A stretch of 64,000 bases of DNA from Leuctra nigra. Its lineage: Eukaryota > Arthropoda > Insecta > Plecoptera > Leuctridae. The stretch spans positions 48,633,411 through 48,697,410 of the forward strand of contig OW203762.1 of the NCBI GenBank assembly GCA_934045905.1. Direction: 5' to 3'. Made by a program: the position numbers and the translations under genes. Every line of letters begins with the position of its first letter. Positions within the stretch are counted from its first letter, which is position 1. The notes under the pieces are model-generated. The model was not told the DNA's origin. It saw nothing but the letters and a program-made list of their open reading frames with translations, and made no database searches. Shown here one piece after another: positions 1 to 41,609 of this stretch.

Positions 1-1311
1 GCGTAGGGGCCAGGATATAACATCTTGCCACAAACTTCGCAAGGAACTAGGGTGCGTGCTATAGAGTCGTCATTATGAGCACTTATCATGTGTTTGGACA
101 AAGATTGTTTGGACAGAAAAGTGGCCTCACAGTGAGTACAGGTGTGCGGAATGCGGTTTCTATGTACTACATAATCTTCATGAATCTTACAATGCTCCTT
201 GCGTTCCAAGGCTGTGGAAAAGATTTCCTCACAAGATTCATGTGAACATTTGAACACAACTGTTTCTTTGTTTATATTTTCAACAGACTTGCCATGAACA
301 TCTTTCCAGTGTACTTCAAGAGATTCCACATCATGCAGCTTTTCCTCACAGAGATAGCAAGAGTAAAGTCGACTGACAACATGTAGATCACAGCTGTGTT
401 TAATATATAACGGTTTGTGCACAAAAGTCTCTCCACAGTTGCAGCGATACGGAGGTTTCCCAGCATGCATTCGCATCATGTGTTCGTACCGCTGCGTCTC
501 GTTATTGTATCCCGCTATTCCACATTCTGGGCAAGAATATTTCTTGTATTTACGCGGACGCCCAATATGAATATGTTGAATATGCCTCTTCATAGAATTT
601 CTCTGATTGAAAGTTTTCTGGCAAATGTCGCAACGGAAACCTTTCGGAGCGTTCATGTGAAGATTACGAATATGATTCCGTACAGTTGCCTTTGTGCGGA
701 ATGCCGATCCACATATATCACAGACGAAGTCTCTGATATTGAAGTGCCGAGTCGAGTGAAGGTTTAGGCGAAAAGCATCGTAAAACGTCCGAGGGCAGAG
801 CGAGCATAGGTACTTCTTGACACGTGTTGAATGGATCATTCGAATATGAAGTTTGACATGCTTGTACCAGTTGCCACAGATAAAGCACAGTTCCTTTTGA
901 TCTGCCTTTTCATGGACTTCTTTCTGGCACTTCTTGGAGGAACTACGGGTAATCACGTCTTTCTTCACTGACTTCACTCTAACACGAGGTTCCTTCTTGA
1001 CTTTGCCTCTATGCTCAAGTCTATTGTGTTTATTCAGTAAAGCTTTGAACAAAAATCCGGTGTGACATCTTTGACACTGGTATGGATGAACGCCGGTGTG
1101 TTGAATCATATGTGTCTCCAACATGGCTGCATTGTTGAATATCTTATCGCACACTTGACACTTGGAAGCCTCCACAGCATGGCTCTTGATGTGTCGCAGT
1201 AACATGGCTTGATGAACATATGAACGCCCACATGTCAAGCACACGTATCTTGAGTTGCGTACTCGCTCAGTAGAGGACAGATCCAGATTCACGGCGGTGA
1301 AATTATCAGAC
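1..1311 (-). CDS. Alternative terminal exon J: at least thirteen C2H2 fingers (3' end off window)
   Basis: Acceptor tatttctttcacag|G TCT at 1312/1311. The frame is open for 436 codons to the window edge with no stop, so the exon is 3'-truncated here. It has twelve complete fingers, including CLTC, CQVC, CQRC, CFIC, CSLC, CDIC twice, CPEC, a CNC finger with one residue between its Cys, CYLC, CSHESC and CTHC. A thirteenth (CEVC) is cut by the edge. It is homologous to exon I. Further terminal exons may lie to the left. Confidence 0.85.
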
Positions 1312-4300: not shown

Positions 4301-7300
4301 TCCACTGGATACCTCAGATGGATGACGATATAAATAAGTTAATAATACATTTGAAAAGTAATCAATCACCTAATGAAGTGGGGACCTATGTCCAAATTAA
4401 TGTAAATATAAATCAATATAAAATATAATATGTAAAACCTGTATTGTGCTGTTAGCTACAGTATAAAGCTACTAATTGGTTTTATTCTTGGAACAGTTAA
4501 GTTGTAAAGCTCCGTTAGGAAAGATGATTAATACCTACACGTCTGTAATAATCTCAAAAAATTTGGGTTTAAAAATGTATTAACTATATAGGAAATACTC
4601 AATTGCTTGACTGCCTAGTTACTTGTTATATTATATTACTCATGTCTAAGCACCTGCGATCAGGAACACTATCAAGTACTTTTTCAAATTAATTTACAGC
4701 ATTCAATGGAACAATTCTACGCTCTTCTGTGAAGAGGCTGGACAAACTTAGAGAACGAGTCTTTTATAATTAAGATGGAAAATGGCAAAGAAACACACAA
4801 GACCCATAGTAGCAATAATTATTTTCATCTTTATTTATTAATATACAACCAATTACACATACCAAAGACTAAATAACCCATATAAACAAAAAGAAGCAAT
4901 ATTGTGAGCTCTAATAGCACTACTTATGCATATTAAGACGATGTTTGTTGCGATCTCCACTTTGAGCGAATGCGCGACCACAGATGTCACACTGATAGGG
5001 CTTCTCGCCGGTATGTGTGCGGATGTGTGTGCGCAGATGTGACTTCTTGCGGAAGTGTTTGCTGCAGATGGGACACTCCACCGGCATGAGATCGGTATGA
5101 GTCAACAGATGCTCCTTAAGACTGGACTGCAGACGGAATGACTTGTTACACAGCTCGCAAGTGTAGTTCATGAGACCAGTGTGAATGGTCATGTGTTGGC
5201 TGCGAGTGAACGCTTGACTCAACTCTTTGCCGCAGATCTCGCAGGGATACTTGATGCTGCGGTCTCGTTGATGGAAGAACTTCTCGTGCTGGCGGAGCCC
5301 TTGCATCGTGGAGTAGCTCTTGTCGCAGTCATGCTCCTTGCAGCTGTACTCCAGCGTCAAGCTGTGGTGGTCACGCAGATGGTCACGCATGGCCTTGGTG
5401 CTGGGGAAGGTCACATGACACAGATCGCAGGCCGGCAGCTGCTTGGGAACGTTGGTCTGGTGAGTCTTCAGCATGTGTCGCTGCTGACCCGCTCGACTGA
5501 AGAACACTCTGTCGCAGAGCAAGCAAGCATGAGCCCCTTCCTCGATCAAGGGATCCCCGCCGTGGACTTTCTGCTGATGAATAGTGAAGCCTCCCTTGGT
5601 TCCGAAACTCTTGCCACAGTCGCAGTGGAAGCGGAAGCGAGTGTCCTCAGGTTTGGTCTGGTGTGCGTCGGCCATGTGTTGGAGAAGAGTGGCCTTCTGC
5701 TGGAAACAATGTCCGCACTCCGAGCAGCCGTACGGCATGGTGCTACTGTGAGAGGCAGAGTGTTCAGTAAGCAGCTTGTGCTCCAAGAACGAAGCACCGC
5801 ATACGTCGCAGATGAAGTTCTTGACGCCCACATGGCGAGCTACGTGCTGCTTGTACGTCACAGCACTCTCAAACGTCTGCCCGCAAAGCTGGCACAAGTG
5901 TGTCTTAGGTCCGTCGCCATGCACGGTGATCATATGTTCGCTCATCTCGTGCCACGGGAACGACTCGTTGCAGATGGAGCAGAGCGAGCGGTCAGAGGAA
6001 GAAGTTTCGTGGGCAATTTTCTTGTGGTGTTGCAGCTTGCTACTGGTGGAGAAAGATTTCCGACATTCATCACACTTAAAGCATTCCGTGTTGAGCTCAT
6101 GCTCCAACAACAAATGCTTATGCAGTGAAGATTTGAAGATGAAACCCTTCTGGCAGACGTAACACTGGTGTGGATGAACTCCCGTGTGCTGGATCATGTG
6201 TGACTCGAGCATGATTGCGTTCTTGAAGGACTTGCAGCAGAGAGTGCACGAGGCCGGCTCCACGGCATGGGTCTTGGCATGTTGAAGCAAGGTCAGCTTG
6301 CGAGCGAACCGTCTCCCGCAAGTGTTGCAAGCGTACTTGGCCTTGGCGACGGCGCGAGAAGTTGATTTCCATTGCTCATTGCCAGGGGCCGTGTCCCACT
6401 CCTCCTGCAGGGCATCTGCTGGTGGTGTCTTCGTGACAGCCGACATTTTCTTCTTGCTCTTCAGCACTACCACATTGGCAGCAGAGTAAGAGATGCGAGA
6501 ACTTTCGATGGCGTGGTGGCCCATTGGCTCAACCGAGACTGGGGCAATGTACATTTCCTCCTCTAATCTGGAAATGAGATCGAATTGGTCAATCAAGAGC
6601 GGAGTACAATACAGTTCAATTAACGAGCGGAGTTCAATTAACGTATAAAATTTGAAATACAATGGAAGGGTTCTAGGAATTGATGCCCAGAACAAAGTCA
6701 ATTGACCAGTTTATTTCTTATAATTTCAAATACATCAAATATTATCCACATATGTAATATGAATATGACAAACTAGTATTGTACATCATAAATTTAACTT
6801 TAATTCAATGTAATAACTTGTTTCCATCTCTTGAGAATCAAGTGTTATAACTTATATATATTTTACTCTTAAAGCACAAGACATTATACCTCAATTACTT
6901 TATAGTTTTGGAAATAAGATAATGCAGGCAGAAAAGTGGAAATACATATTTATTGGGCATTTTACAATGAAAATAATAGCACAAACCAAGAATGTTAAAA
7001 CGAAATTATTATATTAATTAATTAGATAAATGTGAATAAAGAAGGTCTAAAAGTATGGGCGAAGAGAAACACAAATGAGACTCGTCCATAAAATAGGCAA
7101 TCTAAGTACCTTCTGCAGTCGTATCTGTCTATCTCTGAATGCTGTGGCGGGATTTCTCATGTTGCTTCAAGTACCTCTTCTGAGCGAAACTGAGTCCGCA
7201 GCGAGCGCAAGAGAACGGCTTGGCATCGGAGTGGATAAGTTTGTGTCGAGTCAGATCATTCTTCACTCCAAACCGCTTGGCACAGAACTCGCACTCGTGC

Positions 7301-10300
7301 GCCTTCTCTCCTGTGTGCTTGGTCAGATGCGCCAACAGCTGTTGACGCCAACGGAAGTGTTTGTCGCAGTAGGTGCAGGGATGCGGGAATGAATCTGTGT
7401 GGATCTTGGCGTGGATGTAAAGCGATGCCTTGGACTTAAAGGCCTTGCCACACTCGTGGCAAACAAATGGACGTTCTCCAGTGTGGATACGGCGATGATC
7501 TTCGAGGGCGGCTTTCAGTGCAAAGCTGCGACCACACAAGTCGCAAGCATGTTCCTTGATTCCAGCATGAACATGTCGCAAGTGGTACGACAGCCCACCA
7601 GTGTGTGAAAATGATTTTCCACAGATATGACATGTGAAAGGTTTTTCACCTGTATGAATTCGTTTGTGGGACAGCCATGAGTCCTTCTGAGCAAAGTTCT
7701 TATTACACAACTCACACCGGTAGATTTTCTTATCCTTTTCACTTGTATCGACCACTTCTACCTCAGGAACATCTGCAGACGTGTCATTGTCATCTGCAAT
7801 GGATGGTGTACTGGGAGTACTTGGTGTACTCTTCTCCTCATGGGAAGATATGTGTTTATTAAAACTCGAACTGTGTTTAAATGTTTTGTTACAAACATTG
7901 CACACCATACTAACATATCCTATCTTGCTTTTTCCGGACTGAGGTTTTTTAGCTGCCTGAGGCTTGTGCTTCCTGGAGTGTGCGCCAAGCTGTCTCTTGG
8001 TATTGAAGACTTGACCACATTCCTTGCAAGGAAATGATGCAAGCGGCTTGTAGAGCACATTGGAGGCACATCGAGCTCGATGGAATGAGTCAAATGTTCC
8101 CGGATCACCTGACCTAAAAAACAAAGGCATTGAATTATTAAATTCATACACGACTGCTGAATAATCCAGTTCTTGATCACAGGCAACTTACTTATAAAAA
8201 TGAACTTGTCCACGGATTCAGAATTAACTGCCAATAAGTGTACTCTAAAATGCAGGCAGATGGAAATGGGAGGATAAATGGCATTCAAAACTAACTCCAA
8301 AAGGGCTGTATATTTGCATTTGTTATAAGGCAATATAAGGCAATAAAATATGGCTAAGGTAATTTCAATGAAGAAATAATGTAAGGTACTAATAAATAGG
8401 ATAAAACTTAATGGTAAAAGGGGTTCAATAAATGCACTGATAGCCTTTAAAGTTATTTTAATATCAGCAAGTTCTATTGTTGATATGATGGATTTCCAAG
8501 CTTAACTTGGTATCTTGCTATATGAAACTGCATTTCATATGAGAATTAACCCAACCTTTCCCTGAATTTTGTTATATTTCTGTAACATTTTCTTATTTTG
8601 AAAAAGTACCTACTTGGGTATTTTGTGAACCAAAATGTGACAAAATATTGACCGATTCTAACACATATATATCGTGTCTGAGAATTGTTTCTGGCACAAA
8701 ACCCAATTTAAAGCTATCCGTGTCATTGTGATTCCGAGCGTGACTAACCAGATATTGTTGGTTTGGAACTTCTTCAAAGCAAACAAAGTTCGAATTGTTT
8801 GTTCGGAGCAAACAAAGAAAGGGCTTCTCGCCACAAGTAGATGATCATAATGTTGGCCCATGCGGAACTTCGTGTTGCAGTGTAGATCTTGACGTGACCG
8901 TGCAGTGGGAAGACTCTGGTCACTCGGGTGGCAGAGAAATGGGGGCTCGCCCTTTCACACAGTAGGCAACACGAAATTGACTTAGTCGAAAGCATTAACT
9001 GTCAACGGTCGTCAAAGCAGCAGGTAAAAGTACAGGACAAATTAAGAAAATTTTATTTAGTTTAATTTTTTTTTTTATAATTGTAGGTAGGTAGGTACCT
9101 ACCTATAAGGAGTATGCACGTGATCTGTGATTTTGATTTTTGGCCGCCATGACGGGTAGGCTCAAGCTTGTCGAGAGCTTTATTTTGTCTAAATAGTTTA
9201 AAAGCTATATCTTTAGGGCAACTGACAGTGATATTTGACATTATTCATGTTACAGCTTGTCTGCATTTATGTCAAACATACATTCAGGCATTTATTTAAT
9301 TGATAATCCTCTTAAAATAGACAGTTGTCAGCATGGCCAGCGAAATTTGAAACGTATCTTCTGGAAAATGTAATGTTGGAATCAATCAAAATCCATTATC
9401 ATTGATTGAATAGTCTAACCATTAAATATGAACACTAGGGATAACATTTCACCAAGAAAGCAGACGTAAAAGAGTAGACAAATACTAAAATATACAATTT
9501 AAAAACTGGCTTTCACGTTTGACTTTTGTTTTTTTGGGACTGTCATGGCGAAATTTAGGCGGTTAAGAAGGCCGTGAGCTTTCTCGTGCATACTCCTTAT
9601 TGTCTTGAAAAGTACCTCTAGGTAAAAGAAGTTGTGAATCAACCGATTAATGCAACCACCAAATAGACGATTCCTAAAAGTATCTGGGTGGCTCTGGTTT
9701 CTGAAATAATTCATATGCAGCTTGATTTCCAGATATCAATTGACATGTGTGTAACCCATTGTTGACACACATCAATAGGTAAGTGGAAATCAAACAGCAA
9801 GTGAAATTTTCTTATAAAGCAGAGCAGCTCGGATACTTTTAGGAATCGTCTATTGTGTCAATAATTTGAAGCTGTACTTATTCAAACAAAATATAAACAT
9901 ACTTTAAAATAATAAATATAATTTTAAATGTGCATGAGCGCAATTGAAAACTGAAAATGAATGTAAATATACATACCCCAGAATGTCATTAATCAAAGAT
10001 TTGATTTATCTTACCAAGATCAAAGTGTAGTACGATTTACAAAACGTTTATAATATTGGTTGTGAATATTTAGAACTGATAAAGCAAATTTGGAAATATG
10101 TTCTGAAGGATTCATTCTGTGCTGTGTCTTCACTCCTAGCTAGGAGGCTTTTTATTACAAGTTATAAGTCCACTCCTGGACACGGAAAATGGTCCGCAGT
10201 CAATATTCACTCGACTCCTAGGCTAGTATTTATTATTTATTTAAAGTAATTTTTCGGCCCTAAACTCACACTAGCCATCCGGTCTTTGTGCCAAAAAATT

Positions 10301-28300: not shown

Positions 28301-28542
28301 TGCGGGCTACGGCTGAGGGTATGTCAATTGTGCGCAGGTGCATTGGTATGCATGGTTTCAACTGTTCACGCAGTTGCGCTTACGGGATGCGGCTGCGGGT
28401 TATGTCAATTGTGCATGGGCCTTAAGTTGGACCCAAAATTCCACCTTATGCATCTATTTGCCAGTAGATGCAAATAGACAATCTATTCACGAACAAAAAA
28501 GCCTAGCAACAAGACTCTCGCTGTAAAACAGATGTTGAGCCC

Positions 28543-28595
<53 letters not shown>

Positions 28596-31500: not shown

Positions 31501-34500
31501 TTATTGAAAGAGCATGTCTCATGTCCACGCTGCTCATGCAGTTCATTGAACAGTGAAAGAAAATTAGCGTTTAGACTAGACCATCCATAGCATTGCTGAT
31601 AGCATCATGCAAACTTTACGGGTGTCCCTAAAGTAACGCAACAATTACCTAGAACTAAAGGACCGAAAACTGAAAAGCAATACTAAATTCTAATAGACCA
31701 CATTTTATATTATCTAGTTGGCTCTGCTTTTCAAAAAATTTCATATGCAGTACTGTGATCCTCATATCTATTAGTGTTTTTCAACAATGACTCATAACAT
31801 GAATACCTAGATTATATTATATTAGGATCACGGTACTGCGTATGAAATTTTTTGAAAAGCAGAGCCAACTAGATAATTTAAAATGTGGTCTATTAGTTAG
31901 GTACCTAAAATGGAAAAAAATAAAGAAATAATTTTTCTATATCTAAGTTGCTTCTTCAGGTTTTTATAGACCCAAGCTATTACGCTCTAAAACATAAAAT
32001 AATTTGCAAACAAATTGTTGTAACAGAAATTAAAATATAAAAGTAATGACGCAACCATTTTTATGACGCCAGTAACAATACGTATCAAAAAAAGACTGTA
32101 GAGCTCAAAAACCAATCAAATAAAAACTTCACTTTGCAAACAGCCTTGAAATGGGTGGGTTGCATAAAATTTAAGTGACATCAAGGTAGGTACGCAAGAA
32201 GGGAGTAAATTAGCCCGGCAATTTGTTAGCTCGTACTATTTCGAATTTTGCAGCCGAAGAAACTTTCTTCGAAGTGATGCCAGGTGAAGGATGAATCGCT
32301 TTATTGCGTGGTTTCAGACTAGTCAGCACAAACCAAGGCAAGCTACTGGGATGAGTTCAATATCAATATAAAATTAATGCTTGATTGATTCCTACCTTTC
32401 AGTTGCTTCGCTGGTCTCTGGATCGCTTACTTCGGTCTTGGGTTGGATTATTGGTTCACTCTTCTTGCTTCTTAGCCGACTGCGCACCTGAAATTCACCC
32501 ATTCTCTACTCAGTATCTTTAATCAATTAAAGTAACCGTTACAGTACTGGACAGTATGCACTTACAGTAGGTTTCTTAGCAGGAACTGTAGCCTTAGATG
32601 TGCTCGGTTTGCTCAGATCGCCAAGGGGGTCTTCCAGCAACTACAACAAAATATGTGAATTATAATTAAAACGACTACTAAATAAAACGACTACGACATG
32701 ATTCATAAGATTTCACTTTCGTTTCAGCATACATTAACTGGGACGCAGTGGCGTGCCGTGACATTTGAAGTGAGGGAAGCAAATTGCCAGGAAAGAAATT
32801 TGCCCAGACCCGGAGGGGGGTCTGGGGGGCTTGCCCCCCAGCTTAGCCCCGCAGGGAATTTTTTAAAATTTGACTAATTTTAGATGGTTAAAAACAATTT
32901 TGAAAGTACCTTTTTGGAAGATTACTTGAATTTAAGAAATGGTCAAAGGAGGATTTTCAGACTAATTTTTTATATTTTAATCATTAGTTTTTTGAAGGCA
33001 AATACGAGGGCAAATACAGATATACAAAAACTTTGTAGAAATGCGTAAACTGAACTGAGAATCCGAAACTGCAATATTTTGTAGATATTACAAGTTTAGA
33101 CATTCAACCGCTCTTGAGCACTGTCACCGACCGATCACATGTTCGTTCCAATCCTGTCAACTCGGGAGTAGTTCGGCTGCGTTCGGACTGTGGATGCAAC
33201 TCTCCGATTTGCTTCCCTTGGCTAGAATACGCCTGCAGAAATAGACGCATTTTACACAGAAATGCTTTGTGTTTAGACCGGCAAATAATGTTATTATCAT
33301 GGCAAAATAAGTTTTTATTATTGACAATACTTTCAGGTGGCTGCAGATTAACATATTTGATTGTAGGCAAATCACCTAATGCATGCGTAACTCCCGTATA
33401 TAGAGCGAGGGATTGGAAGCAATTCGAAAAGTGAATCCCTTGGAGCCGGCCGACTGCCGAGCCGAGGCAAGTGTATGCGTGCGCACGCGCCTTGCCCACC
33501 TCCTGTCTTAGAAACCGCGTTTACTTTGAAATCAGAGCGAAAGTGGTGACATTTGTGTTCGTAATAAGAATTCTATAAGTAGTATTAAGTGATGAATATT
33601 TTTGTAAAAAGATTAAATTATTATACATATAATTATTATATTTTAATATTGTTGGAATGGAAAAGGAAGGGGAAGCAATGCTTCCCTTGCTTCCATTGAG
33701 TGCACGCCACTGCTGGGACGGGAGACTATAGTCTATATATGCAACTTGTGACTAGATGCGGGAACGTCCACGAGAGTGTCCATCGAATTTTTTCACTTAT
33801 TTAAAGGCTTGATAAGGTTGAGAAGTTGAGAAGCTAGGAGGAAGGAGCTGGGAGTGGAAAGTTTGAGGTTCAAGATGGGTAGCTAGAGAGATTGCGTTGG
33901 TTTGGACACATGAAAAGAATGGATCTCACGAGAATCCCAAGACAGAAGAAGAGTGGGGAGACCAAGAGAGAAGTGGAGTGGTCTTATCAGAGAAGACGTG
34001 GAGGACAGGCAGCAAAGGTGGCAGGTAGTGGAAGCAGATAAGTGGTGGGAGGACAAGAGGATCTGGAGGGAGCTGGTGGAGAAGTTGGAGGAAGGTGACG
34101 AGGATGAAGAAGAGGAGGATAAAACGTCAGGCCTGGCCAGCCGGTTTAGAAGAGATCCGAGGCCCTAGACCCAGTGGGAGCTCCCACTGTCTGACCTGAC
34201 AACATTGTCGAAACCAGAAAAAGATTATTATTTATTTAAAAAAAAAATTATGTTTTTTTAATTTTTTAATTTACCTAATAATATGTAGTACTAGGTATCT
34301 TTTAAGACAGTACTTAAAATAATTAATATTATATTTGACATTAAAAAAATCTAAAATTTAAATTTTGTGATTTTTTTTTATAAAATTTTAATTTTGTTAC
34401 AGTACAGGTAGTAAAATAGCTACTATTGACAATCTTCAAATAATCAAATATATAGTCTTGACCTACTATCAAAAAATATTTTAACGTTACAACGTTACAC

Positions 34501-37500
34501 TAGATAACGTTACATGACCAAAATTTATTTTCTCTGGAATTGATAACAAATAAAGCAAAATTATTTGTAGTACAGTATTTTTTTAAGGTGCCATTGAATT
34601 TGGAAGTGTTTCTAGGAGCTAGTAAGATATACATTAGCTGAAACATGGATCCAGGAGAAATATGTTTCGTAATTCTCATGTTGAAAGAGCAATGTTTTTT
34701 GTCACAAGAATAACAATACATTTATCCCCAATTTTCAATTAAATCGTGTAATATTTCAGTCAAGTTTGTATTAAGATTGCAATGATTGCAAAATGAAAAA
34801 TGCAATGACAAAATATCCTATTTCATTTAATTATGTGCGTGCTCCAAATGTCAATAACAATGGACGTTCCCATAAACGTAACGTAGTGTAGTCTCACTTT
34901 GGGACCATTGGCGACAACAAGTGTAACTTTATGCAGAGTAGGTATATGATTTAAATCATTGATTTAAATCAGATTTAAATCAAATGAATAGATATAAAAA
35001 AGTGCAGACGAATGAAATATTTGTGAAAGTACTTTATTATTAATAAAGTAGACCGTACTTTCACAAATATTTCATTCGTCTGCACTTTTTTATATATTTT
35101 TTTGATTTAAATCAATATAAATCCGATTTTAATCAATAAAAATCTGATTTAAATCAAATAATAAAAAAATTGATTAAAATGGATTTAAATCAAATAAATT
35201 TGAGTTTTTGATTTTTATTAAAAAAATTTAAAAAATCACATACCCTGACTATGCTAAGCAAATGAAACCAACAACACATCATCATTGTTGATCTATAGGT
35301 AGGTGGGGTAGGTAGTTAAAAGCATGTTTTTAGCAAAGCAAAGATCACATCTACATTTTTAAACTAGTAAAATTAAGGAAGAATACCATAAAAAGAGGAA
35401 CATTGTATTGAACACACCTCGACGTGTTTGGAATCATCATCGTCAAAGTTGTCATCTGACTCTCGTTCTTTGTTCAGTTCTTGTTCACGCAGTTGCAGTA
35501 ACTTTTTCTCCGCTGTGACGCAGCCGATGACGAGGTCATGCCAAGCTATGAGAGTTGATGCACACTGGTAGCATACTTGCAGGGGCAGCTTGTCACTTGC
35601 TCTCACCTGGGGACAGTAGATACTCTCTCTCACAAAGTGTAAGTTGCTTGCCATGTACGTTTACACCAGAGTGGTGGCCGGTGGGTAAAACAGAACCAGC
35701 CTTTACATGTACGTACTAGGGCTGGGAAAAACTGAGAATTTGAGTAAACGTTTACCCCTCCCCCCACCCCCAAAAAAACTTTTAATTGGATCACTTAACT
35801 TTTACCAAAATAAGTGTAGTAGGTAGGTACCTATGGTCGGTGACATGACAGGCAAAGAAGAACCCGTTCTGGCATAGGCCGCCCTATACAAATTTGCTAA
35901 ACTGGATTCAGCTTTGCCTGTCACTGACATTAGGTACTATTTGAGCATCAATTGACCAAAAAAGTATTTGACCAGTCAAATCCCATCCCTAAAGTAAAGA
36001 TAGTAAACAGAATGGAATGTCCAAGAGTAATTTTTCTTACCTGAATTGGAAGGTGTTTCTCTATTTTCATTCCTAGCTGATGCTCTAAGCCCTCACCATC
36101 AAAGATTGGGATGAGGTACTCATTTGAGCTGGCACAGATGCGACATAACTGATTGGACTGGACTCCATCGGTCCATTGGTCAACATCACCAGGGTTGTAA
36201 TAATCTTCTCCTTCCATCATAGTGGTTTCCATCAAGCTCGAGGTCCCCGCATCATCCTCAGCTGAAACAAAATGTAGAGTTAATATCGCATACCTCAGCC
36301 CCTCCACTTCCTCGATTAGGTACTTTAAAATAGAAAGATATTTGAGAAGATATAAAACAATTCTTTACATGTAGACCCTCAAGTAGGTACATTAAGGTAT
36401 ACTACCTACATAACTATTACTCAACACATTTGAAGTAGGTACTGTACATTCATTGGTACTACCGTATAAACACGAATATAGTAGGTACAGTCTGTTTTTT
36501 TACTGTATGAACTCTCACCAGATGGAGCCACAGTCAGTTGTTCTGCTAGGCCGAGAAAGACTTCATTGCGCGCTCACCTTGCAATGTTGTCTTTCTCGGC
36601 CTAGCAGAACAACTGACGGTGTCCCGGTCTGTAGAGACAGAACTGTAGGGTACAGTGGCCACTACTCCCAGCTGATATTCTGGACCCTTATTTAATATCA
36701 CAAACCACTAGTTCGGTTATTTGAAGTCCTGGTCATAGCTATATCAATAACATTGCGGGACTAGCCTTGGACTAGGAGAACAATGCTAGTCCACCACTGA
36801 AGTCAAAGCCTAAATCGATATTAAATAAGGGTCCTGGCGCTGAACTGAAGTGATAGATTAAAAAATTATCATGTCGAAAATACTTTTTTTTTCATAAAAT
36901 AAATGATCTAACAGATGATTTTTGTGTATTTTGTTATCAAGCTTGATTTGTAGCGAATAAGTATATTTTTCCTCAAACTGAAGGTTCAAAAACAAGCCCG
37001 GTAACCTTACCCTATATTCAAGGACACGTCCTGAATATAGGGGTCAATACCGTATGTTGAACTGAAGCAAAATAAGTTACTAGTAGCTACCTAGTACCAC
37101 CAATCCTTCTAAAAATGTATTACAACATTTATTACTGTTAAATGGTCATTGCAATATCTTCTGCAATATAATTGAACACGATCTTTGGAGATTCAGAGTG
37201 AGGAGAGCTGTGAGGAATCCTCACTCAGAGTGAGAATACCTTTGATATTATGCCCTTTTAGGTCCTTAGTTAACCACATTATTAAAAAAACAAAAAACGA
37301 GCAAGACAGAGGAATTTTTAAGTTAAAAATTCCTCAAGTTTGTAATTTAGGTTCTTAGGCCGGGTAGGACCGACCAACTTTGGATTAAGTTAATTATCGA
37401 TGGTTAGTGGAAATTAGTGAATCGTATTGGCTGTGGAATTCGCACCAACTTGATTCATTGGTTAACCATAGTTAGTCCTACCCGGCCTTATAGGTCCATT

Positions 37501-40500: not shown

Positions 40501-41609
40501 ATACAGGTTTTGAATTTCAGCCTTGGTTCATAAAACAACCAAAATTATAATTCAATTTCAGCAGAAATTGTGTATAAAAATGCTGCGAGGGCGCAGCAAA
40601 TTTTTTGAGTTTCCTGTTTCAGACCTATTGGATGGTTTAAATTTATGTTAGTGAACAAAATCTTGAAATAAAATTTAAAAATCCACAATTCAAAAGGGAA
40701 AAAATCCACGGGTCTTGGGGGGTGTGGGGACTTGTCCTTTGCACCCCACCCTGCCCTGCAGGACGTTTTTGTTATCGTGACAGTTTGAAATCAATTTTAT
40801 GATGTTTTTACTTTGATCAAAAATTCATTTAAATTTTGAAACTTTGGCCCCTTCCTTGCCCCGCAGGGCATAAAGCGGGTCTATGTGAGGTAATAGAGAA
40901 TATTTAAATGAAAAAAAGACAAGTCAAACACTTACCAAGTTACTTTCATTAAATAACACAGTTCAAAATTACCGCGCAGCGAATTTGTTGAAATTCAAAT
41001 TCTGAAATTTTTACCTAGCTTTGTGCCAAAAGTAGGACAATTATTCCTACTTTCCTACTAAAAAGTACCTAGGAAGAATAGGTAGGTAGGAGAAACTAGA
41101 GGAGAAACTGGGAAGTCTGCCTCAGGCCCTTATTTGCCTTTCCCCTAAGTGGATTAGTATTTGTACCTAGTTAGTATTCTGTCACCCTAGCATTTTTCGC
41201 GGCGCAGTCAACAAACACTTGCCGCTGGGGCTTCCTCTAAATGAAAGTGTGTTGTTTTTGCCTAGAGGAGCAAACCTGTTGCACCTAAAAGGTATATGTA
41301 CACCCTTACCTAATTACAGGACTTGGGTTCCTATGTCCAAAGTAAAACATCTTGAAAATATACCAAACAAAATGTTAAAAATGAGCTTGGCAAAATTCAG
41401 TCCAAACTTCATGTTACTACGAAACTCCACACAAAAGATGGCGTGCATTAAGAACCGAGCCGAGAAGCGAACAGTGCATGGCACGAACGCAATCCTACTA
41501 TTGATTTAAGTTATACACGTACACTTGTTGTCATTACTCACTAACAATGAGAGTATGTTTGCATCAACAATGTGAGTAATAAAATAATGCACTTACATTC
41601 TTTGGACAT
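1..41609 (-). CDS. ZAD-C2H2 zinc-finger locus with ten alternative 3'-terminal exons (whole coding span, 3' end off window)
   Basis: Predicted nuclear sequence-specific DNA-binding protein family made from one gene. Seen: five constant exons join in frame (13, 221, 189, 75 and 92 nt) and encode a ZAD plus linker, about 197 residues. The final donor at 32396/32395 leaves two codon bases (AG). Ten downstream exons all start at an acceptor with one base then an open C2H2 frame, so AG+G (nine exons) or AG+A (one exon) always gives Arg. Complete terminal exons are all 1 modulo 3 in length and end at their own stop. Known: ZADs usually dimerise and C2H2 arrays bind DNA; lola and mod(mdg4) use this layout with BTB domains. 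Inferred: mutually exclusive terminal-exon choice, by cis- or trans-splicing. Predicted isoforms are about 377 to 745 residues. The alternative, separate ZNF genes each with its own unseen first exon, is less economical. Confidence 0.85.
1679..1970. mobile_element. hAT-like non-autonomous element, 292 bp
   Basis: Perfect 14-bp terminal inverted repeats CAGTGGTTAATTTG / CAAATTAACCACTG, flanked on both sides by the 8-bp duplication TCGAGCAC (1671-1678 and 1971-1978). The CAGTGG terminus and 8-bp duplication are typical of hAT. There is no coding capacity. Confidence 0.85.
2534..2677. mobile_element. Palindromic MITE, 144 bp
   Basis: A foldback: GGGCTTATTCTCGAAAAAGT at the left is the near-complement of the right end, which finishes TTTTGAGAATAAGCCC. 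The core contains further TTATCACGTCATAACT / AGTTATGACGTGATAA symmetry. Related sequence is embedded in the element at 17685-17995. Confidence 0.75.
2690..3030 (+). mobile_element. Non-LTR retrotransposon RT C-terminal fragment (RTE-like)
   Basis: An open stretch encodes a typical C-terminal tail of a non-LTR reverse transcriptase: RLRWWGHVQRREEEHMCRRV, then RRRGRPSKTLEKKV, EDMREL, and a final ARWRRLCHVADPT. Everything upstream (endonuclease and RT core) is missing, so it is a 5'-truncated dead copy. Clade assignment is tentative. Confidence 0.7.
3440..3925. mobile_element. Element with CGGGTA-rich ends (probable degenerate hAT-like MITE)
   Basis: Left end has AGGGTACCCAGGTACGCC and repeated GGGTA; right end has ATTACCCGGGTAATT, GCGGGTACCCGGGTAC and ATTACCCGAATCCGGCCTCTA. 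The right terminus, read in reverse (TAGAGGCCGGATTCGGGTAA), matches the left end of the fragment at 54288. No target duplication was identified, so the left border is uncertain. Confidence 0.5.
4830..4835 (-). promoter_or_regulatory. Poly(A) signal of exon I
   Basis: AATAAA on the minus strand, 85 bases after the exon I stop. Confidence 0.6.
4920..6567 (-). CDS. Alternative terminal exon I: sixteen C2H2 fingers
   Basis: Acceptor gatctcatttccag|A TTA, the only one opening with A (AG+A, still Arg). It encodes 548 residues with sixteen fingers, the largest complete array in the window. One finger (HCDCGKSF...) has a single residue between its two Cys, a spacing also present at a comparable place in exon J. 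Finger 12 has the wider CKEHDC spacing. It is the sister of exon J: leader fingers and the phrase HMIQHTGVHP are shared. AATAAA at 4835-4830. The long plus-strand frame inside it (5181-6128) is an antisense shadow. Confidence 0.88.
6568..6948. other. Short spacer between exons H and I
   Basis: AT-rich sequence with the exon I acceptor at its left border and the exon H poly(A) region at its right. No first exon, start codon context or repeat seen. Confidence 0.5.
6949..6954 (-). promoter_or_regulatory. Poly(A) signal of exon H
   Basis: AATAAA on the minus strand, about 175 bases after the exon H stop and before the exon I acceptor. Confidence 0.55.
7129..8113 (-). CDS. Alternative terminal exon H: nine C2H2 fingers
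   Basis: Acceptor cctttgttttttag|G TCA. It encodes 327 residues: two N-terminal fingers (CKEC, CNVC), a Ser/Thr/Pro-rich acidic spacer (STPSTPSTPSIADDND), then seven fingers (CELC, CHIC, CDLC, CHEC, CTYC, CEFC, CARC). The spacer is HLRHVHAGIK. Its C-terminal fingers are closest to exon A, though A lies 19 kb away, suggesting older duplications or reshuffling within the array. AATAAA at 6954-6949. Confidence 0.87.
8593..8995 (-). pseudogene. Decayed C2H2 terminal exon (relative of exon G)
   Basis: Minus-strand reading gives finger-like remnants broken over at least two frames: CCLLCERAS, then KFRMGQHYDHLLV, which matches KKFRMRQHYDNHLRV of exon G, then FVCFEEV and YLVSHARNH, which recalls the last finger of the array. 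Nucleotide similarity to exon G around 11130-11220 is obvious, with small deletions between. No usable frame remains. It lies between exons H and G, where a tandem copy would be expected. It shows that the array loses exons as well as gaining them. Confidence 0.65.
9086..9105. repeat. GTAGGTAGGTACCTACC motif
   Basis: A short palindrome-like run of AGGTA/TACCT units; the same motif recurs throughout the introns, densest at 28,600-31,500. Confidence 0.7.
9662..9854. mobile_element. MITE, 193 bp, TIR AATAGACGATTCCTAAAAGT
   Basis: Terminal inverted repeats of about 23 bp: AATAGACGATTCCTAAAAGT... at the left and ...ACTTTTAGGAATCGTCTATT at the right. The interior contains AATTGACATGTGTGTAACCC and TTGACACACATCAAT symmetry. 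A related, larger copy is at 17685-17995. Confidence 0.8.
10173..10376. mobile_element. Foldback element with TCCTGGACAC ends
   Basis: Imperfect inverted repeats: TCCTGGACAC...TGGTCCGCAGTCAATATTCA at left and the approximate complement GAACATTGACCGCGGACAAA...GTGTCCAGGA at right. Its right end overlaps or abuts the next element. Confidence 0.55.
10371..10517. mobile_element. MITE with GGACCCTTACCTAATAT ends
   Basis: Inverted repeats GGACCCTTACCTAATATCGC at the left and TGCAATATTAGGTAAGGGTCC at the right. The interior has paired CGGTGCTA / TAGCACCG motifs. The same terminus (GGACCCTTATTTAATATC) occurs in the element at 36680-36836, so this is a family. Confidence 0.65.
10915..10920 (-). promoter_or_regulatory. 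Poly(A) signal of exon G
   Basis: AATAAA on the minus strand, four bases after the exon G stop; an unusually close position. Confidence 0.55.
10925..11981 (-). CDS. Alternative terminal exon G: nine C2H2 fingers
   Basis: Acceptor actttgtattccag|G TGG. It encodes 351 residues: two N-terminal fingers (CHVC, CIHC), a basic spacer (RTVRKRARKTYEGEE), then the seven-finger core (CEVC, CHVC, CDIC, CHMC, CPHC, CSIC, CVMC). The spacer after core finger 2 is HVNDVHEQIK. The C-terminal tail after the last His is short. The poly(A) hexamer AATAAA is only four bases after the stop, so the 3' UTR must be very short if that signal is used. A decayed relative lies upstream at 8593-8995. Confidence 0.87.
11982..14426. 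other. Spacer between exons F and G
   Basis: AT-rich DNA carrying one copy of the 280-bp dispersed repeat at 12707. The small plus-strand frames at 13014-13196 and 13726-13959 have no recognisable domain and are not called as genes. Confidence 0.5.
12707..12986. repeat. Dispersed 280-bp repeat, copy 1
   Basis: From GAAAATAAGGAACACAACTG through CTATCAAGGGCGCATTTGC to CTTATTTGTGGGAATA. It is about 90 percent identical by eye to 58761-59044 and somewhat less to 17405-17690, all in the same orientation. No long terminal inverted repeats are evident and no coding capacity. Confidence 0.85.
14427..14432 (-). promoter_or_regulatory. Poly(A) signal of exon F
   Basis: AATAAA on the minus strand, about 87 bases after the exon F stop. 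Confidence 0.55.
14519..15866 (-). CDS. Alternative terminal exon F: thirteen C2H2 fingers
   Basis: Acceptor gctttgtcttgcag|G TGC. It encodes 448 residues with thirteen fingers. Six N-terminal fingers (CVHC, CHVC, CSVC, CTVC, CTIC, CSGC) are followed by a disordered Asp-rich spacer (DNDKDNDDDD). The seven-finger core then follows (CPHC, CHIC, CDVC, CHVC, CSHC, CGMC, CSEC). The spacer after core finger 2 is HVRDVHLRIK. The core is homologous to that of exons D, E and G, so the extra N-terminal block looks like a lineage-specific extension. AATAAA at 14432-14427. Confidence 0.88.
16047..16052 (-). promoter_or_regulatory. Poly(A) signal of exon E
   Basis: AATAAA on the minus strand, about 72 bases after the exon E stop and upstream of the exon F acceptor. 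Confidence 0.55.
16124..16946 (-). CDS. Alternative terminal exon E: seven C2H2 fingers
   Basis: Acceptor gtttgtctttcag|G GAT. It encodes 273 residues with the same leader as exon D (DFQSPHSFNSFLGEQI) and seven fingers (CDIC, CQVC, CSTC, CPTC, CPHC, CTQC, CPIC). The spacer after finger 2 is HVSDVHEKIK. The linker before the first finger is basic (FKKRRTRLSKTQLAAITRAK). Compared with exon D, the finger framework is conserved and helix residues differ, consistent with changed DNA preference. An AATAAA lies at 16052-16047. Confidence 0.87.
17405..17690. repeat. Dispersed 280-bp repeat, copy 2 (divergent)
   Basis: Same family as 12707-12986, with more substitutions (GAAACACGACTGCACTCTGG, TAGCCATCTTGCCAGAAGTG). 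Its right end runs directly into the MITE that starts at 17685. Confidence 0.8.
17685..17995. mobile_element. Composite MITE, 311 bp
   Basis: Left end AATAGACGATTCC and right end GATACTTTTAGGAATCCTCTATT match the 193-bp MITE at 9662-9854. The interior additionally contains a TTATGACATCATAACT... GAGTTATGACGTGATAACTG block ending AAGAATAGCCC, which resembles one half of the 2534-2677 element. It looks like one MITE inserted into another, followed by a deletion. Confidence 0.65.
19203..19208 (-). promoter_or_regulatory. Poly(A) signal of exon D
   Basis: AATAAA on the minus strand, about 229 bases after the exon D stop. Confidence 0.45.
19437..20253 (-). CDS. Alternative terminal exon D: seven C2H2 fingers
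   Basis: Acceptor cctttgtctttcag|G GAA. It encodes 271 residues: a leader of about 70 residues (ELVSSHSFKSFLREQI...), then seven fingers (CEVC, CHVC, CPDC, CHIC, CPQC, CQVC, CPVC) with the spacer HVSDVHDKIK after finger 2. It is clearly the sister of exon E: leader, linker and finger order all align. The pair is therefore a relatively recent tandem exon duplication. An AATAAA lies at 19208-19203. Confidence 0.87.
20395..20400 (-). promoter_or_regulatory. Poly(A) signal of exon C
   Basis: AATAAA on the minus strand, 35 bases after the exon C stop. It lies only about 140 bases before the exon D acceptor, so termination and splicing signals are close together here. Confidence 0.6.
20435..21110 (-). 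CDS. Alternative terminal exon C: seven C2H2 fingers
   Basis: Acceptor cttgtcttgcag|G TGG. It encodes 224 residues: a basic leader (QRLKRRVRRST) and seven fingers (CQLC, CHVC, CDVC, CSSC, CSHC, CTVC, CPAC). The second finger is one residue short in its loop (KRFSQTGLYYHLKHVH) and is followed by the family spacer HVHAGVKEHSC. The order matches the seven-finger core shared by most exons here. An AATAAA signal follows at 20400-20395. Confidence 0.87.
21111..22266. other. Spacer between exons B and C
   Basis: AT-rich DNA without a recognisable gene or mobile element. Confidence 0.5.
22267..22272 (-). promoter_or_regulatory. Possible poly(A) signal of exon B
   Basis: ATTAAA, the common variant hexamer, about 56 bases after the exon B stop on the minus strand. 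Confidence 0.4.
22328..22871 (-). CDS. Alternative terminal exon B: six C2H2 fingers
   Basis: Acceptor gatttgtcttgcag|G AAG. It encodes 180 residues, the shortest array: a very short leader (KSKK) and six fingers (CDIC, CHVC, CTTC, CETC, CAHC, CVTC) followed by a short non-finger tail (HPPATCFNMSLV). The second finger ends with the family spacer HVRSVHECIRD. Finger 5 has a four-residue HMQRAH gap. It is G/C richer at third positions than the flanking DNA. An ATTAAA-type signal lies at 22267-22272. Confidence 0.85.
23758..23947. repeat. Two tandem 95-bp units
   Basis: Units 23758-23852 and 23853-23947 are nearly identical (ATACCCTAAATG against ATACCGTAAATG). Each contains the stem GTGGAGCGGTCGCTCCAC. 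Confidence 0.9.
24794..25191. repeat. Long inverted repeat (hairpin), arms about 158 bp
   Basis: The left arm 24794-24952 (TATCCCCATAAAAAACACTC ... TACTTGGCGCATCG) is the near-perfect complement of the right arm 25034-25191. The loop is about 81 bp. It would fold into one long double-stranded RNA if transcribed from either strand. Confidence 0.9.
25415..26299. other. Spacer downstream of exon A
   Basis: AT-rich DNA; no canonical minus-strand AATAAA for exon A and no recognisable element. Confidence 0.45.
26300..27074 (-). CDS. Alternative terminal exon A: eight C2H2 fingers
   Basis: Acceptor ctttgtcttgcag|G TCC. The exon encodes 257 residues to the stop. A 30-residue leader precedes eight C2H2 fingers: CADC, CQVC, CHMC, CDLC, CDSC, CTYC, CEIC and CPSC. 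Classic TGERPY/TGERPH linkers separate several of them. The third finger ends with the family's non-classical spacer HLKDVHAGIK. The last four fingers closely match exon H (HPCTYC...RRQQ and KPFACPSCGLSFRQKRYLRNH). It is the terminal exon nearest the common donor (5.3 kb intron). No canonical AATAAA was found just downstream. Confidence 0.85.
27484..28423. mobile_element. 940-bp element with 25-bp terminal inverted repeats and a G/C-rich core
   Basis: Left AAGGCCCATGCACAATTGAC(ATAAC) and right (GTTAT)GTCAATTGTGCATGGGCCTT are exact complements. Subterminal GCAGCCGCAAC / GCGGCTGCGGG repeats follow. The core (about 27925-28260) is far richer in G+C than its surroundings and contains a run of 27 G (28017-28043). 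No clear target duplication. Frames through the G run are low-complexity and are not called. Confidence 0.6.
28542..28594. repeat. (AAT)n microsatellite
   Basis: About 17 uninterrupted AAT/ATA units. Confidence 0.95.
28600..32395. other. Intron before terminal exon A, rich in TAGGTACCTA motifs
   Basis: This part of the intron after the common donor (32395) contains one MITE and very many AGGTAGGTA / TACCTACCT words. No further C2H2 exon was found on the minus strand. Confidence 0.6.
31691..31895. mobile_element. Foldback MITE, 205 bp
   Basis: Arms of about 65 bp: TAATAGACCACATTTTATAT ... TTTCATATGCAGTA against TACTGCGTATGAAATTTTTT ... AAATGTGGTCTATTA. TA at the tips suggests Tc1/mariner type. 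Confidence 0.8.
32396..32487 (-). CDS. Constant exon 5: basic linker and the common donor for all finger exons
   Basis: 92 nt, 30 codons plus AG. Acceptor gtgaatttcag; donor GAAAG|GTAGGAATC. It begins with a basic stretch (VRSRLRSKKSEP), a possible nuclear localisation signal, and ends acidic (SDPETSEATE). It is the last exon before the first finger array, and its two leftover bases AG match the one-base opening of all ten downstream acceptors. It is therefore the proposed switch donor. A KTE site (QPKTEV) resembles a SUMO acceptor, but weakly. Confidence 0.75.
32566..32640 (-). CDS. Constant exon 4: linker
   Basis: A short 75-nt exon of 25 codons, phase 0 at both ends, with acceptor ttttgttgtag and donor ACT|GTAAGTGC. 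It encodes a Ser/Thr/Lys-rich, probably disordered linker (LLEDPLGDLSKPSTSK, then ATVPAKKPT). No domain is recognised. It is supported by strong splice sites and by joining in frame with both neighbours. Confidence 0.7.
32746..33712. mobile_element. hAT-like non-autonomous element, 967 bp
   Basis: Termini CAGTGGCGTGCCGT and GTGCACGCCACTG. Perfect 8-bp target duplication CTGGGACG at 32738-32745 and 33713-33720. Subterminal GGGGGTCTGGGGGGCTTGCC and ATGCTTCCCTTGCTTCC. Frames at 33104-33499 and 33114-33434 overlap on opposite strands and show no transposase motif. Confidence 0.88.
33836..34230 (+). mobile_element. Decayed non-LTR retrotransposon 3' end
   Basis: Same family as 53550-54140: the frames read, across a frameshift, WFGHMKRM then GRPREKW and a tail rich in Glu ending RRDPRP. 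The DNA ends in GATTATTATTTATT. No intact frame remains. Confidence 0.65.
34934..35247. mobile_element. Element with GATTTAAATC-rich ends and a central hairpin
   Basis: Ends CAGAGTAGGTATATGATTT and AAAAATCACATACCCTG are approximate complements. Both sides carry repeated TGATTTAAATCA. The middle (about 35001-35095) is a hairpin with arms GTGCAGACGAATGAAATATT and complement. Candidate target duplication is imperfect (ACTTTATG against ACTATGCT). A hAT-like origin is likely but not proven. Confidence 0.55.
35418..35606 (-). CDS. Constant exon 3: C-terminal half of the ZAD domain and acidic tail
   Basis: Acceptor ctgtccccag, donor GAG|GTGTGTTC, 189 nt, phase 0 at both ends. It supplies the second ZAD zinc-binding pair (VCYQCAS) and the long C-terminal helix (IAWHDLVIGCVTAEKKLL), which in known ZADs forms the dimer stem. 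A charged tail follows, with a run of Asp (DDNFDDDDS). Together with exon 2 this gives a complete ZAD of about 75 residues with all four Cys. Confidence 0.88.
35717..35991. mobile_element. Possible hAT-like MITE with TAGGGCTGGG end
   Basis: Left TAGGGCTGGGAAAAACTGA and right ACCAGTCAAATCCCATCCCTA resemble the TAGGG termini of other elements here, but no 8-bp duplication was found. It fills most of the intron between constant exons 2 and 3. Confidence 0.45.
36041..36261 (-). CDS. Constant exon 2: N-terminal half of the ZAD domain
   Basis: Acceptor tttgtttcag before 36261 and donor CAG|GTAAGAAA after 36041; 221 nt = 2 + 73 codons. The first 35 or so residues are acidic and Met-rich. The ZAD then begins with the first zinc-binding pair, QLCRICAS, followed by the typical LIPIFDGEG turn and a helix ending KHLPIQ. 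Exon end is phase 0, so it joins directly to VRASDKLP in the next exon, completing the ZAD. The open frame continues upstream past the acceptor, but that part is intron. Confidence 0.85.
36533..36617. repeat. Dispersed hairpin, copy 1
   Basis: Arms GTCAGTTGTTCTGCTAGGCC... and complement with AAGACTTCATTGC / GCAATGTTGTCTT continuing the stem around the loop GCGCTCACCTT. A second copy is at 44996-45074. It does not have tRNA structure. Confidence 0.8.
36680..36836. mobile_element. MITE with GGACCCTTATTTAATATC ends
   Basis: Left CTGGACCCTTATTTAATATC, right GATATTAAATAAGGGTCCTGG. Same family as 10371-10517. Confidence 0.7.
37356..37490. mobile_element. MITE with TAGGCCGGGTAGGAC ends
   Basis: Inverted TAGGCCGGGTAGGAC and GTCCTACCCGGCCTTA, 135 bp. 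The interior has GGTTAGT / ACTATGGTTAACC symmetry. Confidence 0.65.
37662..38136. mobile_element. Non-autonomous DNA element, 475 bp, TIR TAAAGCTGSGTTCCCATACT
   Basis: Left TAAAGCTGGGTTCCCATACT(TCGC) and right (GCGA)AGTATGGGAACGCAGCTTTA. Subterminal TTCGCATTCGGTTC matches GAACCGAATGCGAA at the right. The minus-strand frames inside have no domain. Superfamily not determined. Confidence 0.75.
38552..38668. mobile_element. Tc1/mariner-like MITE, 117 bp including TA flanks
   Basis: TACAGTCAGGGAAACTAGAT ... and ATCTAGTTTCCTTGACTGTA: long inverted repeats bounded by TA dinucleotides, nearly a full foldback. Confidence 0.8.
39382..39745. mobile_element. hAT-like element, 364 bp
   Basis: Termini CAGGGGTCAGCAACCTG and GGTTGCCGACCCCTG, a classic hAT tip. 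Flanks ACATTGGG and ACATAGGG match at 7 of 8. Internal repeats of AACCGCCC..GGGCAACAATTG. Confidence 0.8.
40077..40098. repeat. Poly(C) run, 22 bases
   Basis: Uninterrupted C homopolymer; length may be affected by sequencing. Confidence 0.9.
41597..41609 (-). CDS. Constant exon 1: start codon and first four residues
   Basis: The first coding exon is very short: ATG at 41609-41607, four codons (MSKE) and one extra T before a good donor, GTAAGTGC. The extra T joins the CT that opens the next exon at 36261 to make a Ser codon, so the phase fits and the protein continues as MSKESEDD. The region upstream is CG-rich, as expected of a promoter and 5' UTR. The call rests on phase and donor quality, because 13 coding bases carry little coding signal. 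The alternative start is an in-frame ATG within the next exon. Confidence 0.6.

What the first reader, a model, noticed from the sequence alone, without database searches (positions are those of the whole stretch)
1..41609. A lola-like locus built on a ZAD domain: one 5' module, ten alternative C2H2 terminal exons
Seen: five small exons encode a complete ZAD plus linker and end after two codon bases. Ten downstream finger exons (six to sixteen fingers, about 94 complete fingers in total) all begin at an acceptor with exactly one base, always completing Arg, and each complete exon has its own stop. Known: Drosophila lola and mod(mdg4) do this with a BTB domain. I do not know of a described ZAD equivalent with this many terminal exons. 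Inference: the locus makes at least ten transcription factors that share a dimerisation domain and so could heterodimerise. The locus continues to the left, so there may be more.
Basis: partly seen in the sequence, partly recalled or inferred. Interest (0 to 1): 0.93.

Follow-up and report, generated by a model that had tools for sequence, protein, structure and literature searches.

The report
Insect gene with ten alternative endings
This insect gene appears to join one shared protein-pairing front end to any of at least ten different DNA-binding back ends, so one gene could make a whole set of related gene switches that pair with one another; database gene models show the same plan at the matching gene in cockroaches, termites, ants and other insects.

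Summary
On the minus strand five exons (41609-32396) encode a ZAD (Pfam zf-AD, E 1.4e-12) plus linker and stop after two codon bases (AG). Ten C2H2 exons downstream each start after AG with one base completing Arg; the nine complete ones have their own stop. Related insects carry the same module as annotated isoforms. In Periplaneta 18 of 18 rows (one contig length) share the module and diverge at the junction, 16 of them into different finger arrays; Cryptotermes (7), Macrosteles (3), Menopon, Anabrus and Cardiocondyla (2 each) do likewise. Exons A, C and H have orthologues in other orders that mostly keep the DNA-contact residues. New here: exons A-H share a near-invariant 12-base acceptor (TTTGTCTTGCAG) inside flanks without similarity. 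It works like lola and mod(mdg4), but with a ZAD; it is not a member of either family. No RNA evidence was available for this organism, and the isoforms elsewhere are gene models. Ten paper searches found no description. New variant of a known kind.

The parts
41597..41609 (-). 5' exon 1: ATG and first four codons plus one base (MSKE)
   Evidence: GT donor, frame joins exon 2; weakest exon, chosen by frame and donor; first exon varies between relatives (P0029 against P0006)
36041..36261 (-). 5' exon 2: first half of the ZAD (CRIC pair)
   Evidence: Pfam zf-AD residues 43-116 of the joined protein, E 1.4e-12
35418..35606 (-). 5' exon 3: second half of the ZAD (CYQC pair) and start of linker
32566..32640 (-). 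5' exon 4: linker
32396..32487 (-). 5' exon 5: linker; ends ..GAAAG|GTAGGA, leaving two codon bases AG; common donor
   Evidence: the same boundary (..ER..SR..NR..DR) in relatives
26300..27074 (-). Terminal exon A, 8 fingers, TGA
   Evidence: clade with Periplaneta P0016, Macrosteles P0024 (a long branch) and ant or unnamed rows P0121, P0114, P0115, P0118, P0119, support 98/92
22328..22871 (-). Terminal exon B, 6 fingers, TAG
   Evidence: no clear orthologue
20435..21110 (-). Terminal exon C, 6-7 fingers, TAA; no in-frame ATG before the fingers
   Evidence: 75% identical to Periplaneta P0015 over 195 residues; 100/100 clade with orthopteran and phasmid rows
19437..20253 (-). Terminal exon D, 7 fingers, TGA; starts 181 nt after the stop of C
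   Evidence: lineage duplicate of E
16124..16946 (-). Terminal exon E, 7 fingers, TAA
14519..15866 (-). Terminal exon F, 11-13 fingers, TAA; starts 257 nt after the stop of E
   Evidence: groups with G and Periplaneta P0031, 99/95, long branches
10925..11981 (-). Terminal exon G, 9 fingers, TGA
7129..8113 (-). Terminal exon H, 9 fingers, TAG
   Evidence: with Periplaneta P0018 and a hymenopteran exon clade
4920..6567 (-). Terminal exon I, 14-16 fingers, TAG; a second class of exon
   Evidence: groups loosely with Periplaneta P0017, P0019, P0020, P0029 and Macrosteles P0026
1..1311 (-). Terminal exon J, incomplete (runs off the left end), about 8-11 fingers so far; class of I
27075..27086 (-). 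Shared acceptor of exon A, TTTGTCTTGCAG (12 of 12)
22872..22883 (-). Shared acceptor of exon B (12 of 12)
21111..21122 (-). Shared acceptor of exon C (11 of 12)
20254..20265 (-). Shared acceptor of exon D (11 of 12)
16947..16958 (-). Shared acceptor of exon E (11 of 12)
15867..15878 (-). Shared acceptor of exon F (12 of 12)
11982..11993 (-). Shared acceptor of exon G (10 of 12)
8114..8125 (-). Shared acceptor of exon H (9 of 12)

Best explanation
A single ZAD-C2H2 locus makes a family of transcription factors or architectural proteins by alternative terminal-exon choice. The five constant exons encode the ZAD and linker and end at one donor (32396). That donor is spliced to one of at least ten finger exons, each with its own acceptor, stop and 3' end. 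Splicing could be in cis, since all exons lie on one strand in order. All isoforms carry the same ZAD, and three studied ZADs (Pita, ZIPIC, Zw5) form only stable homodimers. The isoforms would therefore recognise one another and little else: a closed set of homo- and mixed dimers (up to 55 kinds from ten isoforms, by arithmetic) that could each read, or bring together, two DNA sites. Shown: anatomy, phase, stops, orthology of some ends and conservation of their contact residues. Supported through relatives' annotated isoforms: the splicing pattern. Inferred: expression here, dimer mixing and biological role.
For: Exact exon structure and junction Arg in 10 of 10. Shared N-modules with divergence at the junction: 18 of 18 Periplaneta rows listed with one contig length (17 share the full first 232 residues, P0029 differs only at its start), 7 of 7 Cryptotermes rows (207 residues), 3 of 3 Macrosteles, 2 of 2 Menopon, Anabrus and Cardiocondyla. 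Orthologous finger exons: reciprocal best hits for 6 of 10 in Periplaneta; clades for A (98/92), C (100/100) and H (92/92). In-register DNA-contact residues agree at 0.64-0.89 in 7 orthologue pairs and 0.08-0.64 in 13 paralogue pairs. Five of ten exons (C, E, F, G, J) have no in-frame ATG before their fingers. Stop-to-AATAAA median 86 nt against 620 for random sites, 0.0016 of 5000 draws. No second ZAD in the window. Homodimer-only ZADs: PMC5509000 section 8.
Against: No RNA reads or cDNA for this organism. The relatives' isoforms are database gene models, and models over-join: Periplaneta P0007 puts a retinol dehydrogenase body on the same module, P0003 has no finger by the strict pattern. 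Belonocnema P0035 carries two finger arrays in series, so ends may not always be mutually exclusive. Exon B has no clear orthologue, and 4 of 10 exons (B, E, G, J) are not reciprocal best hits in Periplaneta. The orthologue and paralogue contact ranges touch at 0.64. Exons A and B lack AATAAA within 700 nt. No dimer was modelled. The ZAD match to solved ZADs by sequence is weak (grauzone E 0.042).
Confidence: 0.88

Rival explanations
1. A tandem cluster of separate C2H2 genes, one of which (A or another) owns the ZAD exons; the others have their own starts.
For: Genes with similar ZADs often form small clusters in insects (PMC5509000 section 8). A, D and I have in-frame ATGs inside the exon before the fingers.
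Against: tblastn with seven ZAD modules finds one ZAD in the window and nothing else below E 0.4; no zf-AD in the ten finger exons. Five of ten exons have no usable ATG, and B and H have one only on the intron side. Gaps of 181 and 257 nt leave little room for promoters. All ten acceptors share phase and eight share sequence. Orthologous exons in other orders are annotated on the common module.
Confidence: 0.05
2. Trans-splicing: the ZAD exons and some finger exons are separate primary transcripts joined in trans, as described for mod(mdg4) and lola.
For: The analogous fly loci do this (PMC4667647 and PMC11426971 passages). Some exons are widely spaced, with gaps up to 3.6 kb.
Against: All exons are on one strand in transcription order, so cis-splicing suffices; no finger was found on the plus strand. 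Tightly packed C/D and E/F leave little room for separate promoters.
Confidence: 0.12
3. A decaying array: only one or two finger exons are used and the rest are relics.
For: B and J are divergent; exon sets differ between species.
Against: Ten of ten frames are open over 180-548 residues. Between paralogues, third codon positions differ far more than first and second (D/E 112 against 44 and 45 of 211 codons; NG86 dN 0.23, dS 3.6, near saturation; dS not computable for the six other pairs). Contact residues are largely kept in orthologues of A, C and H.
Confidence: 0.04

Closest known systems
lola (longitudinals lacking), Drosophila
   Same: One constant 5' dimerisation module, many alternative 3' exons, mostly C2H2: 17 of 20 isoforms (PMC11426971, passages)
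   Different: BTB of the TTK type (hexamer-forming, broadly heteromeric) instead of a ZAD; trans-splicing documented; few fingers per lola exon (recalled), here 6-16
mod(mdg4), Drosophila and other insects
   Same: Constant 5' exons, 30 or more alternative 3' ends; tandem exon duplication (PMC4667647, passages)
   Different: BTB and FLYWCH domains; exons on both strands and trans-splicing in flies; its trans-splice sites are reported not conserved between species, whereas here the junction is kept across orders and the acceptor is near-invariant among eight paralogous exons
ZAD-C2H2 (ZAD-ZNF) family, e.g. Pita, ZIPIC, Zw5, M1BP, cucoid
   Same: N-terminal ZAD, C-terminal C2H2 array, likely architectural or promoter role
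   Different: In those described, one gene has one main finger array and the family grows by whole-gene duplication. Culicine cucoid has three isoforms with alternative 3' ends, which shorten the same finger array (PMC9810180, abstract and passages)
Unnamed loci annotated in Periplaneta, Cryptotermes, Zootermopsis, Anabrus, Bacillus, Macrosteles, lice, ants and other Hymenoptera
   Same: Same module and junction; orthologous finger exons for some ends
   Different: Known only by automatic names (for example zinc finger protein 260-like isoform X18); no description of the locus found in the ten paper searches

Membership tests
ZAD-C2H2 family | N-terminal zf-AD domain | tested here: met
   PF07776 E 1.4e-12, 48.1 bits against cut-off 28
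ZAD-C2H2 family | Two Cys pairs about 50 residues apart | tested here: met
   CRIC and CYQC in the window; a C-x2-C pair at both places in 18 of 18 non-outgroup N-modules by eye in the alignment
ZAD-C2H2 family | C-terminal C2H2 arrays | tested here: met
   zf-C2H2 in 10 of 10 terminal exons
ZAD-C2H2 family | ZAD homodimerisation | not testable with these tools
   needs a binding assay; literature on other ZADs only
lola / mod(mdg4) (as gene families) | BTB/POZ domain in the constant exons | tested here: not met
   Pfam scan of the five exons plus exon A finds zf-AD and no BTB; so it is not a member
lola-like architecture (works like) | One constant 5' module with a single common donor | tested here: met
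lola-like architecture (works like) | Many alternative terminal exons of one phase with own stops | tested here: met
   10 of 10 same phase, 9 of 9 complete ones with stop
lola-like architecture (works like) | Transcripts joining one module to several ends | tested here: inconclusive
   No transcripts for this organism. Gene models of 6 of 7 relatives with two or more rows put different ends on one module; in Ooceraea the two rows share the end
mod(mdg4) | FLYWCH domains in variable exons | tested here: not met
   none among Pfam hits of the ten exons
lola / mod(mdg4) | Trans-splicing | not testable with these tools
   needs phased reads; all exons on one strand here

The most novel reading that the evidence does not exclude
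The near-invariant acceptor TTTGTCTTGCAG before eight old, diverged exons is a locus-specific splicing code. One dedicated RNA-binding factor, or a deliberately equalised set of splice sites, governs choice among all class I ends, while class II ends (I, J) use a different site and rule. Together with one self-selective ZAD this makes the locus a combinatorial dimer system, kept since the ancestor of cockroaches, bugs, lice and Hymenoptera, in which splicing decides which pairs of DNA sites can be brought together.
Probability: 0.3. Interest if true: 0.82.

Novelty: new variant of a known kind. Interest (0 to 1): 0.64.

Why it matters
Insects are described as multiplying ZAD-C2H2 factors by copying whole genes. 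Here the copying is of the finger exon only, so every copy inherits the same dimerisation domain. Since the three ZADs tested in print bind only themselves, whole-gene copies can drift into separate partners, but these isoforms cannot: they should stay in one dimer network. That gives a natural test of what shared dimerisation is for, and an independent parallel to lola and mod(mdg4) with a different domain. The uniform acceptor makes choice of terminal exon directly testable. It also warns that automatic annotation scatters one locus over many unrelated-looking names.

Tried and rejected
Missed finger exons: a finger HMM over open frames of 20 or more residues gave no further frame with a domain at i-E 0.01. 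Plus-strand exons as in mod(mdg4): none found. A complementary docking site for the acceptor, as in Dscam (recalled): the plus strand has 4 of 3813 AG sites at 10 of 12 and none higher; taken as chance and not pursued. Naming the host insect: the N-module tree places the window nearest the cockroach-termite rows but in no supported clade; left open. dS-based dating: saturated. Own-genome search for exons left of the window: the tool did not complete. Structure prediction was not run; the ZAD call rests on Pfam and cysteines.

My first contact-residue count compared the last six pattern-matched fingers without alignment; B/A was out of register by one finger and exon C lost one finger to the pattern. 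Its figures are replaced by the aligned count, which narrows the contrast (ranges touch at 0.64).

Generic C2H2 hits (mammal ZNF74, fish and others, about 28-42% identity) were treated as background; of 167 hits 120 were listed, and I fetched 64 of the 114 new ones among these. Chrysoperla, Trypoxylus and Photinus ZAD proteins fall outside the N-module clade and were not counted as the same locus. Left out of the first finger tree: P0001, P0003, P0007, P0027 and window J (short, no block, or incomplete). Left out of the second: fifteen long-branch or class II rows, W_B and W_I among them; ten rows were added.

Full report
What is in the window. On the minus strand lie five small exons and, after a 5.3 kb gap, ten large single-exon finger blocks. 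The five exons are 41609-41597, 36261-36041, 35606-35418, 32640-32566 and 32487-32396. All have GT donors and, after the first, AG acceptors. Joined they give 590 nt of open frame that begin MSKESEDDAG and end ..SEATE plus the two bases AG. Pfam finds zf-AD at residues 43-116 (E 1.4e-12), with the two Cys pairs CRIC and CYQC. The ten finger exons (A 27074, B 22871, C 21110, D 20253, E 16946, F 15866, G 11981, H 8113, I 6567, J 1311) each follow AG and supply one base that makes AGG or AGA, Arg, in 10 of 10. A to I end in their own stop; J runs off the left end. zf-C2H2 is found in 10 of 10. I count 86 fingers strictly and 91-93 loosely. A finger HMM over open frames of 20 or more residues found no others at i-E 0.01, and tblastn with seven ZAD modules found one ZAD and nothing else below E 0.4.

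Is the shared phase more than chance? In each finger ORF several AGs could serve as acceptor. By a crude pyrimidine score the junction AG is best in 7 of 10 and second in 3 of 10, and it is always in the same phase. The stronger evidence is sequence. Exons A-H share the last 12 intron bases, TTTGTCTTGCAG: 12 of 12 in A, B, F; 11 in C, D, E; 10 in G; 9 in H; I and J have 7 and 8, no better than the constant exons (4 to 8). Of 3486 AG sites on the minus strand, the seven that score 10 or more are exactly A to G; the motif was taken from A, B and F, so those three are circular. On the plus strand 4 of 3813 score 10 and none more. Mean pairwise identity among A-H is 0.84 at -12..-3 but 0.22 to 0.32 in each of five flanking stretches. 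Random sets of eight from 325 other acceptor-like sites of the locus give 0.323, sd 0.033, maximum 0.468 in 5000 draws. A-H were grouped after seeing that I and J differ; with all ten the value is 0.73, and with A, B and F left out (C, D, E, G, H) 0.78, flanks again 0.20 to 0.33. A short site has been kept while the sequence around it was lost.

Relatives. Searching with residues 1-196 of isoforms A and I gave 27 rows of 328 candidates and 33 rows of 455, 34 different proteins. They include Periplaneta americana isoforms numbered up to X28, Cryptotermes secundus up to X18, Zootermopsis, Timema, Macrosteles quadrilineatus X1-X3 and the lice Polyplax and Menopon. One more Periplaneta row (P0027) joins part of the module to a Mos1-like transposase and is listed with another contig length. 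The 7 Cryptotermes rows share 207 residues. In Anabrus (214), Cardiocondyla (209), Ooceraea (209), Menopon (223) and Macrosteles (176-177) the rows also agree exactly up to the junction. The last shared residue is Arg, except that one of three Macrosteles rows has Ser, as expected if the codon is split AG|N. The Ooceraea pair differs by an inserted stretch and shares its end.

Which ends are old? By BLAST, 6 of 10 window bodies are reciprocal best hits with a Periplaneta body (A, C, D, F, H, I); B, E, G and J are not. In trees of the last six fingers (53 rows; 48 rows) exon C sits in a 100/100 clade with Periplaneta P0015, Anabrus, Bacillus and Dryococelus. A groups with Periplaneta P0016, Macrosteles P0024 (long branch) and five ant or unnamed rows (98/92; 92/89 with fewer rows). 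H groups with Periplaneta P0018 and a hymenopteran clade (92/92, 98/93). D and E are duplicates within this lineage (100/99). If the trees are right, A- and H-type ends predate the split of cockroaches from Hymenoptera. Cardiocondyla carries both on one module (P0117 H-type, P0121 A-type). No Diptera or Lepidoptera turned up; whether they lost the locus was not tested.

The fingers differ where it matters. With sequences aligned, the contact positions agree at 0.64-0.89 in 7 orthologue pairs and 0.08-0.64 in 13 paralogue pairs; other finger positions at 0.66-0.75 and 0.31-0.70. In 4 of 7 orthologue pairs (H with P0018, C with three rows) contacts are kept better than the rest and in H/P0076 about equally; in the two A pairs they are kept less well. 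In 13 of 13 paralogue pairs contacts agree less than the rest. Ends are therefore expected to read different DNA sites, most clearly C and H.

Against separate genes. Exons C, E, F, G and J have no in-frame ATG between the upstream stop and the first finger; B and H have one only upstream of the junction; A, D and I have one inside. D starts 181 nt after the stop of C, and F 257 nt after that of E; both gaps hold AATAAA (at 34 and 71 nt). Over nine exons the median stop-to-AATAAA distance is 86 nt against 620 from random sites, 0.0016 of 5000 draws; with ATTAAA allowed 80 against 322, 0.014. A and B are exceptions for AATAAA (752 and 1008 nt).

The acceptor in other species. Among unnamed or read-through rows (37 listed, sequences), thirteen can be lined up by eye as running across the junction into the translated intron. 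Seven read LSCR or MSCR (P0038, P0039, P0046, P0064, P0066, P0069, P0070), one LSFR (P0059), one LSSR (P0083), one LFFR (P0082); three ant-like rows read CFYR, LFCR, YYCR (P0109, P0118, P0106). LSCR is what TTGTCTTGCAGG encodes; window exons A, B, C and F read LSCR and D and E read LSFR. This is amino-acid evidence only; the DNA was not seen, and the ant rows do not fit.

Mechanism. Shown: anatomy, phase, orthology of some ends, conserved acceptor. Supported by gene models in relatives: alternative joining. Inferred: one donor competes for many acceptors along the nascent transcript, each end with its own poly(A) signal; all products share one ZAD. The ZADs of Pita, ZIPIC and Zw5 form only stable homodimers, and sites for different ZAD proteins do not support long-distance contacts (PMC5509000, section 8 read). 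If this ZAD behaves alike, the isoforms form a closed dimer network. Why eight acceptors are near-identical is open: a dedicated factor, equalised strength, or a copied site under plain splice-site constraint. The last is the dull reading, but plain constraint leaves pyrimidine tracts free to vary, as the other acceptor-like sites here do.

Known or new? It works like lola and mod(mdg4) (PMC11426971 and PMC4667647, passages) but no BTB or FLYWCH domain was found, so it is not a member. It is a ZAD-C2H2 gene by domain. Ten paper searches of an open-licence library found no description of such a ZAD locus; most subscription papers are not held. The isoforms are in public databases under scattered automatic names, so the raw fact is on record though apparently not described.

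Noticed in passing
window 49225-49677, minus strand: Ubiquitin-conjugating (E2) domain, UQ_con E 3.7e-20; the sequence resembles the E2 end of BIRC6/BRUCE (name recalled). Three further open frames on the same strand up to 61.5 kb gave no Pfam match.
   Followed up: partly
window 34987-35100, 36513-36637, 38551-38669: Three strong inverted repeats (46-57 nt arms, 84-96% complementary, 11-22 nt apart) in the introns of the ZAD exons, probably small transposable elements.
   Followed up: partly
window 46311-47213 plus and 53559-54059 plus: Open frames that look like pieces of LINE reverse transcriptase by eye; Pfam gave no match.
   Followed up: partly
P0007 (Periplaneta): Annotated isoform X25 joins the ZAD module at the same junction to a retinol dehydrogenase body: a modelling fault or splicing into the next gene.
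   Followed up: no
P0027 (Periplaneta): Part of the ZAD module joined at the same junction to a Mos1-like transposase in a gene model.
   Followed up: no
P0035 (Belonocnema): Two finger arrays in series behind one module; the second groups with the H-type ends. Ends may sometimes be strung together.
   Followed up: no
window exons A, C, D, E, H, first residues after the junction: A short motif ([ST]-F-x-[AS]-F: TFKAF, SFQSF, SFKSF, SFNSF, TFDSF) recurs soon after the junction, with like stretches in relatives (TFREF, SFKAF, SFRAF); seen by eye, function unknown.
   Followed up: no
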